From positions 747,869 to 811,868 of the forward strand of contig NZ_VEWL01000001.1 of NCBI RefSeq assembly GCF_006376685.1: DNA of 64,000 bases, given 5' to 3'. Below the pieces are notes generated by a model that was given only the letters and a program-made list of their open reading frames with translations, was not told where the DNA came from and did no database searches. Made by a program: the position numbers and the translations under genes. Below, in pieces: positions 5,640 through 62,592 of this stretch. This DNA is from Ochrobactrum teleogrylli (GTDB taxonomy: Bacteria; Pseudomonadota; Alphaproteobacteria; Rhizobiales; Rhizobiaceae). Numbering within the stretch: position 1 is the stretch's first letter; each line of letters begins with the position of its first letter.

Positions 5640-5808
5640 ACAAAAAAAGTCGACTAAGGGGTTGAACAATGCGGCTGACTGATCCATATCGGGGTTACTT
5701 ACCGCTGTGCCTCCTCCCATTGCGCGCGGTAAGTGTTCCCCTCTGGAGGTTTGCCCAAGTGGCACCTTCATAACTAAGCCGGACTTCCTAGTCCGGCTCT
5801 TTTTTTGC
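5640..5808 (+). ncRNA. Candidate CCUCCUCCC (anti-SD) small RNA
   Basis: No protein-like frame is present, but structured elements are: a stem CTTACCGC (5698-5705) with GCGGTAAG (5726-5733) enclosing CCTCCTCCC at 5710-5718, then an intrinsic terminator (5777-5798, 9-bp stem) followed by a long T run. A loop-exposed CCUCCUCCC is the mark of the alphaproteobacterial CcsR/cuckoo/alpha-r14 type RNAs. GGAGG at 5745-5749 could pair with the motif in an alternative fold. The 5' end is unknown; 5640 is a guess. Confidence 0.6.
5777..5808 (+). terminator. Intrinsic terminator of the candidate small RNA
   Basis: Perfect stem AGCCGGACT / AGTCCGGCT with loop TCCT, followed by C and a run of T. It is not preceded by a plus-strand protein gene, which is the main reason to infer a short RNA here. 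Confidence 0.85.
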
Positions 5809-10555: not shown

Positions 10556-10730
10556 TGCCCCTCTGTCTCAGGCCTGAGAGACTCGCATAGCAAAGCGCTA
10601 TACTTACACCTTCGGCGCGGAGTTTCCCCCGACTTTCCAGAGTTGTCTTACCCGTCTGCGGTTCCTTGTACCTGAGAGATTTCGGGCGATTTCCCCTTCG
10701 GCGGCCAATTTGGCGCTCTCCCGCAGACAG
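10556..10730 (-). promoter_or_regulatory. Tandem glycine riboswitch (gcvT element)
   Basis: Read on the minus strand, two aptamers follow one another. The first is closed by CCGCAGAC (10721-10728) and GTCTGCGG (10654-10661) and holds GGGAGAG, CGCCGAAGGGG and CTCTCAGGTA. The second lies from about 10642 to 10558 and holds CTCTGGAAAG, CGCCGAAGG and CTCTCAGGCC, closed by ACAGAGGGG. This is the two-aptamer class with a short linker. It ends ~50 bases before the gcvT start and most likely switches the gcv operon on with glycine. Confidence 0.93.
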
Positions 10731-11151
10731 ACAGTGAAAAAGCATTTGTAAAACGCATGCTTCGGCACCCGACACAAATCCCTTAGCTTAATCCGCTTTG
10801 GGAGTCATGCAGAATTGTAGTCTTCAACCGACAATTTCCAGAAGTTTTGCGACAAAACTTGAGTCATTGCGCCCGCCGCCCAAGAATCAGCCGACATACA
10901 TGTTTAAATCGGAGATTTTCACTAGCTATGCGGAAAATGATAGCGATGGAGGCTCTGTACGGCATCAAATTTGGTGATTTGGCCATGGAGAACGGCAATT
11001 GTGATAACATAATGACCGATCTGCGTAAAAAACATGCAATCTCCAAGCTTAATTGCACATCAGCTATGCAAATCTGGCTCTCCTTTTTCAGATCGCACCA
11101 GCCTATATGCTGTCTGCAACACAGAGAGATAGATTTTACTAGGTGAGAGAA
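10731..11151. other. Intergenic stretch upstream of gcv operon and DUF1127 gene
   Basis: This 420-bp gap must hold the minus-strand gcv promoter near 10740-10800 and the plus-strand promoter of the DUF1127 gene. A CTATATG sequence at 11103-11109 could be a -10 element for the latter, but I see no clean -35. No protein gene is supported. Confidence 0.4.
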
Positions 11152-11298
11152 ATGAACCTGATCCGCTCGTACAACAACTGGCGCCGTTACCGTACAACCG
11201 TAAACGAACTGAGCCGCCTGAGCCCACGTGAACTGAACGACCTCGGCATCCTGCCTTCGGAAATTCCGTTCGTCGCACGCAAGGCTGCTGCTCGCTAA
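11152..11298 (+). CDS. DUF1127 small basic protein (CcaF1-like)
   Basis: 48 residues, starting MNLIRSYNNWRRYRTTVNEL and ending SEIPFVARKAAAR. The core LSRLSPRELNDLGI is the DUF1127 signature. AGGTGAGAG lies 2-10 bases ahead of ATG. It is arginine-rich and soluble. In Rhodobacter a DUF1127 protein (CcaF1) is encoded just before the CcsR small RNAs and was reported to affect RNA; here too a CCUCCUCCC RNA follows, ~110 bp after the stop. A role in RNA handling is an analogy, not shown. Confidence 0.88.
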   Translation: MNLIRSYNNWRRYRTTVNELSRLSPRELNDLGILPSEIPFVARKAAAR

Positions 11299-11405
11299 TC
11301 AGCGGGAAAAGCGCCATCCGAAGGCATCAGCCTTCTTTCAGGATCGCGACCTCCAAACCGCGCGGTCCTCATGGTTTCCAGGGCATTCAATTGCTCAAAC
11401 GAGTT

Positions 11406-11525
11406 ATCGCCGGGGTTTCCTCCTCCCATTTTTCCCTGGCGATCCAAAGACCGGACATCCTCCTCCCCCATTGTCCGGTCTTCCCCATAAGCACCCGTCG
11501 CTCCTCCCGCGACGGGTGTTTTTGT
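11406..11525 (+). ncRNA. CcsR/cuckoo-type small RNA with three CUCCUCCC hairpins
   Basis: Three consecutive hairpins each expose the same motif. Hairpin 1, 11406-11443 (ATCGCC/GGCGAT stem), holds CCTCCTCCC at 11419-11427. Hairpin 2, 11449-11480 (GACCGGAC/GTCCGGTC), holds CCTCCTCCC at 11459-11467. Hairpin 3, 11492-11518 (CACCCGTCGC/GCGACGGGTG), has loop TCCTCCC and ends in a T run, so it is also the terminator. The RNA may be cut from the DUF1127 transcript, as in Rhodobacter CcsR1-4. The 5' end is not visible in the sequence. Confidence 0.8.
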
Positions 11526-61650: not shown

Positions 61651-62592
61651 TCATTGCAGTCTGCTTGTGGACGAGCGGGACAGAGACGCGCCGGACACAT
61701 CGCGCAATATCTGGATAAGCATTTGCAGCGCCCCGGAGCTGACCGTATCCGTCCGCATTGTCAGACCAACCGGCCCGACAGTCTCGCTGGTATCGATCGG
61801 TAACATGACCAGTTTGCCTTCCGCCACATCGCGCGCCACGACACCTTCGGAAATGATCCAGATTGCATCGCTCTCGCGAACGAAAGCGCGCCCGAAAGCA
61901 TCCGACACGGTTTCAACCTGAATGGGCAGCGCGCCAATGCCGTTGGCAATCAGCAACCGCTCCACAAAAGGACGGATGATCGAATTTTGCGTCGGCATCA
62001 GCACCGGATAATCCGCCAGATGGTCGAAGACGGGTCGCCCGTCGGTCAGCGGATGCCCTGCCCGGACCAGAAACCGCACCTGCTCGGAATAGAGGTGTTC
62101 GAAGGAAAAGCCGGTCATCTTTTCCGGCGCGGCCAGACGCCCGACAACCAAATCGAGATCGCCGACGCGCAACTGCTCCAGCAAAACCGCATTCTCGCCC
62201 GTCACGATCTTCACGCGGCTGCCCGCCTTTTCCGCCAGAAACAGGCTCATGGCCTTGGGCATGATGCGTGTGGAAACTGTCGGCAAGGCGCCGACACGAA
62301 TGGGCGGGCCGGAACCGTCGAGCTCCTGCGAGACCGAATCCAGCCCCTGCCGCAAGGCCGTCAGCGCCGTACCCGCATGGCGCAGGAATACCTCGCCAAA
62401 CCGCGTAATACGAATGCCGCGACCGTCGCGCTCCAGAACCGGAACGCCCAGCACCTCCTCCAGCTCACGGATAGTTTTGGTGACGGCGGGCTGGCTGATA
62501 TTCAAAATCTCCGACGCCTTGACCACGCTCTTCTGCCGCGCCACTTCAACAAAGGTGTGCAGATGGCGAAACTTGATCCTGTTTCCGATCAC
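61651..62592 (-). CDS. pcaQ: PcaQ, LysR-type activator of the pca operon
   Basis: 313 residues from a GTG at 62592. It begins IKFRHLHTFVEVARQKSVVK, with HTH AILNISQPAVTKTIRELEEV-type sequence (ASEILNISQPAVTKTIRELE) and a LysR substrate domain. It is divergent from pcaD, the fixed PcaQ arrangement in rhizobia and Agrobacterium, where beta-carboxy-cis,cis-muconate or its lactone is the co-inducer. The PcaQ box lies 8 bp before the start. Confidence 0.93.
   Translation of the reverse strand: MIGNRIKFRHLHTFVEVARQKSVVKASEILNISQPAVTKTIRELEEVLGVPVLERDGRGIRITRFGEVFLRHAGTALTALRQGLDSVSQELDGSGPPIRVGALPTVSTRIMPKAMSLFLAEKAGSRVKIVTGENAVLLEQLRVGDLDLVVGRLAAPEKMTGFSFEHLYSEQVRFLVRAGHPLTDGRPVFDHLADYPVLMPTQNSIIRPFVERLLIANGIGALPIQVETVSDAFGRAFVRESDAIWIISEGVVARDVAEGKLVMLPIDTSETVGPVGLTMRTDTVSSGALQMLIQILRDVSGASLSRSSTSRLQ

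What the first reader, a model, noticed from the sequence alone, without database searches (positions are those of the whole stretch)
11152..11525. DUF1127 gene followed by a triple-hairpin CCUCCUCCC small RNA
All three hairpins present the same anti-Shine-Dalgarno motif, the last one inside the terminator loop. A DUF1127 gene right before such an RNA is the known Rhodobacter CcaF1-CcsR layout. Repeating the decoy three times in one RNA suggests titration of an RNA-binding factor or of ribosome sites on several mRNAs. The hairpins and motifs are seen directly; the function is inferred.
Basis: partly seen in the sequence, partly recalled or inferred. Interest (0 to 1): 0.75.

Follow-up and report, generated by a model that had tools for sequence, protein, structure and literature searches.

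The report
αr14 small RNA behind DUF1127 gene
This is a known type of bacterial small RNA that carries the same ribosome-site-blocking motif in three hairpins, sitting at the tail of a tiny-protein gene; what is new is evidence that gene and RNA are probably switched on together by the same kind of regulator that is known to drive a free-standing version of this RNA.

Summary
Window 11402-11524(+) folds into three hairpins with CUCCUCCC at each loop, the last inside the terminator, 103 nt behind a 48-aa DUF1127 gene. It is a full-length match to Rfam ar14 (αr14, the NfeR1 family), whose published hallmark is this triple motif; the DUF1127-plus-RNA layout is known too (CIN1 locus). It is not a CcsR, though a cousin. 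All 23 same-genus genomes searched keep the pair; stems covary. Added here: (1) no promoter was found directly before this copy, so it is probably the 3' end of the DUF1127 mRNA. (2) The DUF1127 promoter has a TGCA-N9-TGCA dyad exactly 49 nt before the -10. This geometry precedes 64 of 80 named DUF1127 relatives (73 with looser matching), CcsR-like loci at 48 nt, and two of three free-standing αr14 copies here; it fits the published VtlR box. (3) Genes with the complement GGGAGGAG before their start are mostly ABC-transporter genes (12 of 21; control 0 of 14). Likely mechanism: VtlR/LsrB-type activation, release of αr14, redundant antisense blocking of transporter translation. I had no expression data for this copy.

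The parts
11054..11070 (.). TGCA-N9-TGCA dyad, proposed VtlR/LsrB site; the reverse strand reads GCAT-AGC-TG-ATG-T, matching the published VtlR box GCAT-N3-TG-N3-T
   Evidence: box from PMC7486931 (passages)
11103..11108 (+). -10 element CTATAT, 49 nt after the dyad start; CCTATAT invariant in the 24 aligned sequences
11141..11147 (+). ribosome site AGGTGAG of the DUF1127 gene
   Evidence: GGTGAG kept in the alignment
11152..11298 (+). short DUF1127 protein, 48 aa
11320..11335 (+). spacer hairpin 1 (GAAGGC-AUCA-GCCUUC), conserved in relatives
11341..11368 (+). spacer hairpin 2, C-rich loop; possibly a decayed fourth module (inference)
11402..11524 (+). αr14 small RNA (RF02344, 73.5 bits, gathering 58.8); no good promoter match directly upstream
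11406..11443 (+). hairpin 1 with CCUCCUCCC loop
11447..11482 (+). hairpin 2 with CCUCCUCCC loop
11489..11521 (+). hairpin 3, intrinsic terminator with CUCCUCCC at its loop
57799..57815 (+). candidate target site inside the window: GGGAGGAG before the ATG (57813) of an SBP_bac_3 solute-binding protein gene

Best explanation
The locus makes one transcript from an activator-dependent promoter (dyad plus -10) that is probably recognised by the LysR-type regulator VtlR/LsrB. The transcript encodes a short DUF1127 protein and ends in an αr14 RNA whose third hairpin is the terminator. The RNA is released by processing in the hairpin-bearing spacer (inferred, probably by RNase E in analogy with ccaF1-CcsR). 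Its three CUCCUCCC loops are interchangeable antisense seeds that bind GGGAGGA-type ribosome sites, mainly of ABC-transporter substrate-binding-protein mRNAs, and block translation. Shown here: RNA family, structure, conservation of the pair, lack of a recognisable separate promoter, promoter geometry shared with two free-standing αr14 copies, target-site bias. Inferred: regulator binding, co-transcription, processing, silencing.
For: Rfam ar14 full-length match. 24-sequence alignment: 98.8% of cells paired, 12 of 31 pairs with double changes, 0 of 500 shuffles as good on any measure. Pair present in 23 of 23 same-genus genomes. No terminator-like site on + in the spacer. Free-standing copies L001 and L004 have a -10 at their 5' end with the dyad 49 nt before it; the window copy and the C41 copy show neither there. 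Dyad at 49 nt, one mismatch allowed: window, 21 of 23 orthologues, 17 of 17 fetched C41-type paralogues, 64 of 80 named DUF1127 loci; controls 0 of 80 downstream and 0 of 80 reverse strand; one site at that spacing in the 64-kb window. With two mismatches 73 of 80; single-spacing counts are 72 at 49 and 0-4 at every other spacing from 42 to 56; controls 0, 0 and 1 of 80. GGGAGGAG-N3-10-ATG: 26 matches against 4 for the reversed pattern; 12 of 21 frames of 100 aa or more are ABC-transporter genes against 0 of 14 for GAAGGAGA (Fisher one-sided p 0.00035). LsrB binds and activates nfeR1 (PMC10746234, introduction and passages); VtlR activates three DUF1127 genes and abcR2 (PMC12595884, passages).
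Against: No transcript, binding or processing was seen. In S. meliloti only one of six αr14 copies was reliably detected by Northern blot (PMC7143759, passages), so this copy could be weak or silent. The promoter goes with the DUF1127 gene rather than with the RNA: under the looser rule 60 of 80 named loci have promoter and motif, 13 promoter only (four Bartonella loci among them), 4 motif only, 3 neither. A Sinorhizobium locus (L293) has the promoter at 48 nt and no motif. The box does not match the printed S. meliloti spacing TGCA-N6-GCAT, and its half-site points the other way in the free-standing copies. The -35 is poor, and the promoter score used is blunt: the free-standing copy L003 scores no better (6 of 12) than the window copy, and L003 has the dyad but no fitting -10. 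The 80 named loci are related, so counts are not independent. The target test used one usable control pattern.
Confidence: 0.68

Rival explanations
1. The RNA is an independent αr14 gene with a cryptic promoter in the spacer; its place behind DUF1127 is only shared neighbourhood.
For: NfeR1 has its own promoter (PMC10746234), as do L001 and L004 here. The free-standing copy L003 scores no better than the window copy in my promoter scan, so absence is not proven.
Against: Best promoter-like match before the window copy is weak (6 of 12) and misplaced; the spacer has two conserved hairpins and no terminator-like site; 64 of 80 relatives have the motif within 600 nt behind DUF1127, many within 30 nt of the stop, where there is no room for a promoter.
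Confidence: 0.15
2. The hairpins are mainly a 3' stabiliser or terminator array of the DUF1127 mRNA, and the anti-SD loops sponge ribosomes or the DUF1127 protein rather than pair with specific mRNAs.
For: DUF1127 protein CcaF1 is reported to act with RNase E in maturing CcsR RNAs (PMC10253847, passages); motif number varies from 1 to 10 in the relatives that have it.
Against: The motif is kept in most hairpins while stem pairs change by compensation; exact complements of the loop lie before ABC-transporter genes; NfeR1 motifs silence targets by pairing (PMC10746234). Whether DUF1127 binds RNA or protein is disputed (PMC12501420, passages).
Confidence: 0.12
3. A true CcsR relative under heat-shock sigma control as in Rhodobacter.
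For: Same gene order as L053; CcsR-like loci L053, L054 and L055 have a dyad at 48 nt much like the one here.
Against: One three-hairpin unit instead of tandem two-hairpin RNAs; full-length αr14 by Rfam, while L053, L219 and L221 are not hit. No RpoH promoter model was run.
Confidence: 0.05

Closest known systems
αr14 family (Rfam RF02344): NfeR1/SmelC397, SmelA075 of Sinorhizobium
   Same: Three hairpins, CCUCCUCCC at each loop, variable stems, about 123 nt, several copies per genome
   Different: This copy has no recognisable promoter of its own and lies behind a DUF1127 gene
CcaF1-CcsR1-4 of Rhodobacter sphaeroides (RS0680a)
   Same: Short DUF1127 gene followed by anti-SD hairpin RNA; CcsR-like loci fetched here also have a dyad, at 48 nt
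   Different: CcsR: four separate RNAs, two hairpins each, RpoHI/RpoHII promoter (literature); here one three-hairpin RNA that matches αr14
CIN1 locus / cuckoo RNA (Reinkensmeier and Giegerich 2015; paper not held, known from a citing passage)
   Same: Short DUF1127 genes next to CcsR-like RNAs in many alphaproteobacteria
   Different: Not told apart here; the promoter geometry and its probable regulator are the added point
AbcR1/2 (αr15)
   Same: Anti-SD seeds on ABC-transporter mRNAs; VtlR/LsrB regulation reported
   Different: Different Rfam family; AbcR reported to bind Hfq, NfeR1 reported Hfq-independent

Membership tests
αr14 (RF02344) | Covariance-model score above gathering, full length | tested here: met
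   73.5 bits against 58.8, positions 1-123 of 123
αr14 (RF02344) | Three hairpins each with CCUCCUCCC unpaired | tested here: met
   the third copy lacks the first C of the nine
αr14 (RF02344) | Stems variable, loops constant | tested here: inconclusive
   12 of 31 pairs have double changes, but within the genus mean column identity is alike for stems (0.89) and motif columns (0.90), the hairpin-1 motif being out of register in that alignment
αr14 (RF02344) | Own sigma-70 promoter with conserved upstream motif (a feature of NfeR1, not required by the RNA model) | tested here: not met
   none found before 11402; a dyad promoter lies before the DUF1127 gene instead
αr14 (RF02344) | Accumulates as a small RNA and silences targets | not testable with these tools
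   no RNA data
CcsR | DUF1127 gene directly upstream on the same strand | tested here: met
CcsR | Tandem separate two-hairpin RNAs | tested here: not met
   one three-hairpin unit; L053 shows four two-motif units
CcsR | RpoHI/RpoHII promoter | not tested
   no RpoH model was run; a dyad promoter was found
CcsR | RNase E and CcaF1 dependent maturation | not testable with these tools
   -
VtlR/LsrB regulon | GCAT-N3-TG-N3-T box before the promoter | tested here: met
   on the reverse strand
VtlR/LsrB regulon | S. meliloti LsrB motif TGCA-N6-GCAT as printed in PMC10746234 | tested here: not met
   the site reads TGCA-N9-TGCA
VtlR/LsrB regulon | Regulator binds and activates | not testable with these tools
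   -

The most novel reading that the evidence does not exclude
Short DUF1127 genes across alphaproteobacteria, those with αr14 RNAs and those with CcsR-like RNAs alike, share one ancient LysR-type promoter of fixed geometry (dyad 48-49 nt before the -10). Through it VtlR/LsrB drives DUF1127-RNA dual transcripts as well as free-standing αr14 RNAs (and, by the literature, AbcR), filling a common pool of anti-SD RNAs that turns down ABC transporters. Part of what has been credited to the small proteins or to AbcR in VtlR/LsrB mutants would then come from the RNA at the 3' end of the DUF1127 message.
Probability: 0.48. Interest if true: 0.65.

Novelty: new member of a known kind. Interest (0 to 1): 0.43.

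Why it matters
The RNA itself is an ordinary αr14. The useful part is a join between two lines of work. The NfeR1/LsrB papers seen here (PMC10746234, PMC8844928) do not contain the word DUF1127, and the VtlR papers seen (PMC7486931, PMC12595884) do not contain NfeR1, while one describes an LsrB-activated αr14 RNA and the other VtlR-activated DUF1127 'small proteins'. If the DUF1127 messages carry αr14 at their 3' ends under the same regulator, deletion phenotypes of DUF1127 genes need to be re-read for loss of the RNA, and transporter effects of VtlR/LsrB get an obvious mediator. The fixed 49-nt geometry makes the regulon searchable, and its presence before CcsR-like loci makes it testable in Rhodobacter too.

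Tried and rejected
CcsR membership: rejected on structure and Rfam. A further argument, that CcsR-like loci lack this promoter, was dropped when I checked it: with one mismatch L053 shows none (one search printed only a two-mismatch site), but L054 and L055 have perfect dyads and L053 a two-mismatch dyad, all at 48 nt from a -10-like hexamer.

Fourth hairpin at this locus: spacer hairpin 2 has a C-rich loop but no CTCCTCC; left as a possible remnant. The C41 paralogue does have a fourth exact motif.

DUF1127 ribosome site avoiding its own RNA: 0 of 80 named loci have a GGAGG-type site in 22 nt, but only 2 of 33 listed genes of a Pseudochrobactrum plasmid stretch do, so the absence means little.

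E. coli-type SD as a control (AAGGAGGT): 8 matches against 7 for the reversed pattern, too few to use.

abcR copies: the window's ar15 (5697-5804) has no dyad-plus-(-10) in its upstream stretch; the second copy (L291) has a near dyad, TGCATGGCAGCTTTGCG, but no -10 that fits my rule.

The half-site CAGCYATGCA alone: 31 in the genome against 19 for the reversed pattern, so weak by itself. Two further CAGCTATGCA sites (L222, L223) have no Rfam match near them and were not followed.

Literature: the eight searches listed no paper that I saw to tie VtlR/LsrB to a DUF1127-linked αr14. The 2015 cuckoo paper and the 2021 CcaF1 paper were asked for and are not held; the 2015 VtlR paper and the 2018 fucose paper were not asked for. 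PMC7486931 mentions two other VtlR-activated small RNAs whose family I did not check.

Full report
WHAT IS THERE. The window stretch 11152-11298(+) encodes a 48-aa protein with a DUF1127 domain (PF06568, 57.6 bits). 103 nt after its stop, 11402-11524(+) matches Rfam ar14 over its full length (73.5 bits, gathering 58.8). The stretch folds into three hairpins at -59 kcal/mol, z -10.1 against shuffles. CTCCTCCC lies at each loop (11420, 11460, 11501). The third hairpin is an intrinsic-terminator-like site.

CONSERVATION. I searched 40 genomes (the window's own, 23 of its genus, 16 of other families in the order) for the RNA family and for DUF1127. All 23 same-genus relatives have the pair of the window; in one of them (G013, a fragmented genome) the RNA scores 39.5 bits, below the gathering score. 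I fetched all 23. In each the DUF1127 frame is 48 aa and CTCCTCC follows. On an alignment of 24 sequences the helices have 98.8% standard pairs, 12 of 31 pairs with changes on both sides, and no shuffle of 500 reaches these values; slid controls fall to 40-49% paired. The core TCCTCC is in hairpin 1 of 24 of 24, hairpin 2 of 23 and hairpin 3 of 21. So single motifs are lost now and then while stems stay, which fits redundancy; all three are never lost together. Mean column identity within the genus is about the same for stems and motif columns (0.89 and 0.90), so at this short distance loop constancy is not the stronger signal. The spacer holds two further conserved hairpins (22 of the 24 sequences aligned; L079 and L092, with a large insertion, left out).

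COPIES IN THE GENOME. The genome (4.76 Mb) has six ar14 matches, five above the gathering score, and seven DUF1127 matches. Two DUF1127 genes, the window's and one on C41, are followed by ar14 within about 300 nt on the same strand. Three copies (L001, L003, L004) are free-standing. L001 and L004 have a -10 (CTATTT) just before the RNA with a -35-like hexamer 17 nt further up; the window copy and the C41 copy have no such element. The scan is blunt: the free-standing L003 scores as low as the window copy (best 6 of 12). I conclude that the two DUF1127-linked copies are most likely 3' ends of the DUF1127 transcripts. This is inference; there is no RNA evidence.

THE PROMOTER. Upstream of the DUF1127 gene in the 24 sequences two blocks stand out: CAGCTATGCAAA and CCTATAT. 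The first holds half of a dyad TGCA-N9-TGCA. In the window the dyad starts at 11054, exactly 49 nt before the -10 CTATAT at 11103. A scan of both strands of the 64 kb with one mismatch allowed finds this spacing once (a second, one-mismatch site at 61655 has spacing 52). The spacing is 49 in 21 of 23 orthologues (48 and 47 in the other two) and in 17 of 17 C41-type paralogues that I fetched, out of 23 seen in the tables. It is also 49 in L001 and L004; L003 has the dyad but no -10 that fits. On the reverse strand the dyad reads GCAT-AGC-TG-ATG-T, which fits the published VtlR box GCAT-N3-TG-N3-T (PMC7486931, passages). By those passages VtlR of Brucella and Agrobacterium is the orthologue of LsrB of Sinorhizobium. 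LsrB binds and activates the promoter of NfeR1, the founding αr14 (PMC10746234, introduction and passages). VtlR activates three DUF1127 genes and abcR2 (PMC12595884, passages). Two cautions: the printed S. meliloti LsrB motif is TGCA-N6-GCAT, which this site does not match, and the CAGCTATGCA half is turned the other way in the free-standing copies.

SURVEY OF NAMED GENOMES. The sample leans to close relatives, and the loci are not independent. Within 600 nt downstream of the stop 64 of 80 have at least one CTCCTCC, 57 at least two and 48 at least three; three control stretches (antisense downstream, sense upstream, antisense upstream) give 1, 3 and 4 of 80, none with two. Counts run from 1 to 10 where present: the two Nitratireductor loci with nine motifs (L211, L214) have three tandem ar14 matches and one Aurantimonas locus (L169) four. 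The 49-nt promoter, one mismatch allowed, is in 64 of 80; controls 0 and 0 of 80. Under that rule promoter and motif occur together in 57, neither in 9, one alone in 14.

A LATE CHECK WIDENED THE PROMOTER. Going back over the claim that CcsR-like and Rhizobium loci lack the promoter, I allowed two mismatches and found the claim wrong. At 48 or 49 nt it is present in 73 of the 80; counted one spacing at a time, 72 loci have it at 49 and 0 to 4 at every other spacing from 42 to 56. Controls give 0 of 80 (downstream), 0 of 80 (further upstream) and 1 of 80 (reverse strand), and 1 of 426 stretches of the window. The Rhizobium plasmid loci L295 and L296 have it with two mismatches at 49, Sinorhizobium L293 with one at 48. 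So the promoter belongs to short DUF1127 genes at large, and goes with the gene rather than with the RNA: by this rule and, 60 of 80 have promoter and motif, 13 promoter only (the Bartonella loci L174, L180, L181 and L186 among them), 4 motif only, 3 neither. What ties the promoter to the RNA is that the RNA follows the gene without a terminator, and that two free-standing αr14 copies have the same promoter. Because of this wider reach I raised the odds of the novel case from 0.45 to 0.48 and the interest from 0.40 to 0.43.

ORDER AND CLASS. A sequence-only pattern (two CCTCCTCCC at 18-48 nt) hits 37 of 199 genomes of the order and 16 of 289 of the class, the window's own genome counted in both; some hits are chance, as the reversed pattern also hits a few genomes. 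Of 29 loci taken at order level, 10 have a DUF1127 frame within 1.5 kb. L053 shows a 72-aa DUF1127 frame followed by four two-motif units, the CcsR layout. Rfam ar14 does not reach its gathering score on L053, L219 or L221. Of five loci taken from plasmid records, L260 has motif and promoter, L295 and L296 four motifs each, L293 and L294 no motif.

TARGETS. The exact complement of the loop before a start codon, GGGAGGAG-N3-10-ATG, occurs 26 times in this genome against 4 for the reversed pattern. One is the C41 RNA read backwards and four open frames under 100 aa. Of the remaining 21, ten are solute-binding proteins and two are ABC ATPases; others include a PTS permease, a LysE exporter and an MFS protein. 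With another strong ribosome site, GAAGGAGA-N3-10-ATG, there are 39 matches; 30 were given as loci, in one of these my script found no frame, 14 have frames of 100 aa or more, and none of the 14 is an ABC-transporter gene by Pfam (one is a TRAP subunit, one LysE). Fisher one-sided p is 0.00035. Duplex energies of the three loops with the 21 sites are -16.6 to -27.1 kcal/mol, with ten of the control sites -7.3 to -19.7, with the two DUF1127 ribosome sites -4 to -8; the first is expected from how the sites were chosen. One candidate target lies in the window (57799). This agrees with published NfeR1 target predictions, mostly ABC transport systems (PMC10746234, introduction).

HOW IT WORKS. Best reading: VtlR/LsrB-type activation of a DUF1127-αr14 transcript, release of the RNA in the spacer, and redundant antisense silencing of transporter mRNAs. 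The step from RNA to silencing is borrowed from NfeR1, where the three motifs act redundantly (PMC10746234, PMC7143759). The step of release is borrowed from ccaF1-CcsR (PMC10253847, passages). The role of the protein is open: RNA binding for CcaF1, protein binding for Agrobacterium and Salmonella members (PMC12501420, passages). The main risk is that this copy is silent: in S. meliloti only one of six copies was reliably detected (PMC7143759, passages).

WHAT IS KNOWN. Three- and four-hairpin RNAs with CCUCCUCCC at each loop, grouping with the two-hairpin RS0680a of Rhodobacter, were described in 2011 as one family with a varying number of modules (PMC3927594, section 2.7 read). The association with short DUF1127 genes is named the CIN1 locus (PMC10253847, passage). 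The novelty claim is therefore narrow: the shared promoter geometry and its probable regulator for DUF1127-linked copies. My literature searches did not show this link, but papers of 2015, 2018 and 2021 that bear on it were not read.

Noticed in passing
window 5697-5804 (+): αr15 (AbcR family) RNA, 65 bits; a second copy lies at G000 C12:289003-289116. In Phyllobacterium leguminum (L158) an αr15 gene sits about 210 nt before the DUF1127-αr14 pair.
   Followed up: partly
window 10649-10733 (-): Glycine riboswitch aptamer before the gcvT gene of a glycine-cleavage gene set, divergent from the DUF1127 promoter.
   Followed up: no
L002 / L224 (G000 C41:104188-104324): DUF1127-linked paralogue with a fourth CCTCCTCCC motif upstream of the three, like the four-hairpin SmelA099 type.
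   Followed up: partly
L010 (G000 C23:20151-20366): A third short DUF1127 gene has the published VtlR motif CAATGCAGCCATGCA exactly in its upstream region, and an αr14 copy lies about 2.7 kb downstream on the same strand; its leader also holds GGGAGGA.
   Followed up: no
L009 (G000 C1:653330-653440): A fourth short DUF1127 gene has a one-mismatch dyad 49 nt before CTATTT, with no CTCCTCC in the 330 nt printed behind it.
   Followed up: no
L174, L180, L181, L186 (Bartonella): DUF1127 gene keeps the perfect dyad at 49 nt but shows no CTCCTCC within 600 nt: apparent loss of the RNA in this lineage.
   Followed up: partly
   Followed up: partly
   Followed up: no
L039 (G033) and L221 (uncultured Nioella): Ten anti-SD motifs behind one DUF1127 gene.
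   Followed up: no
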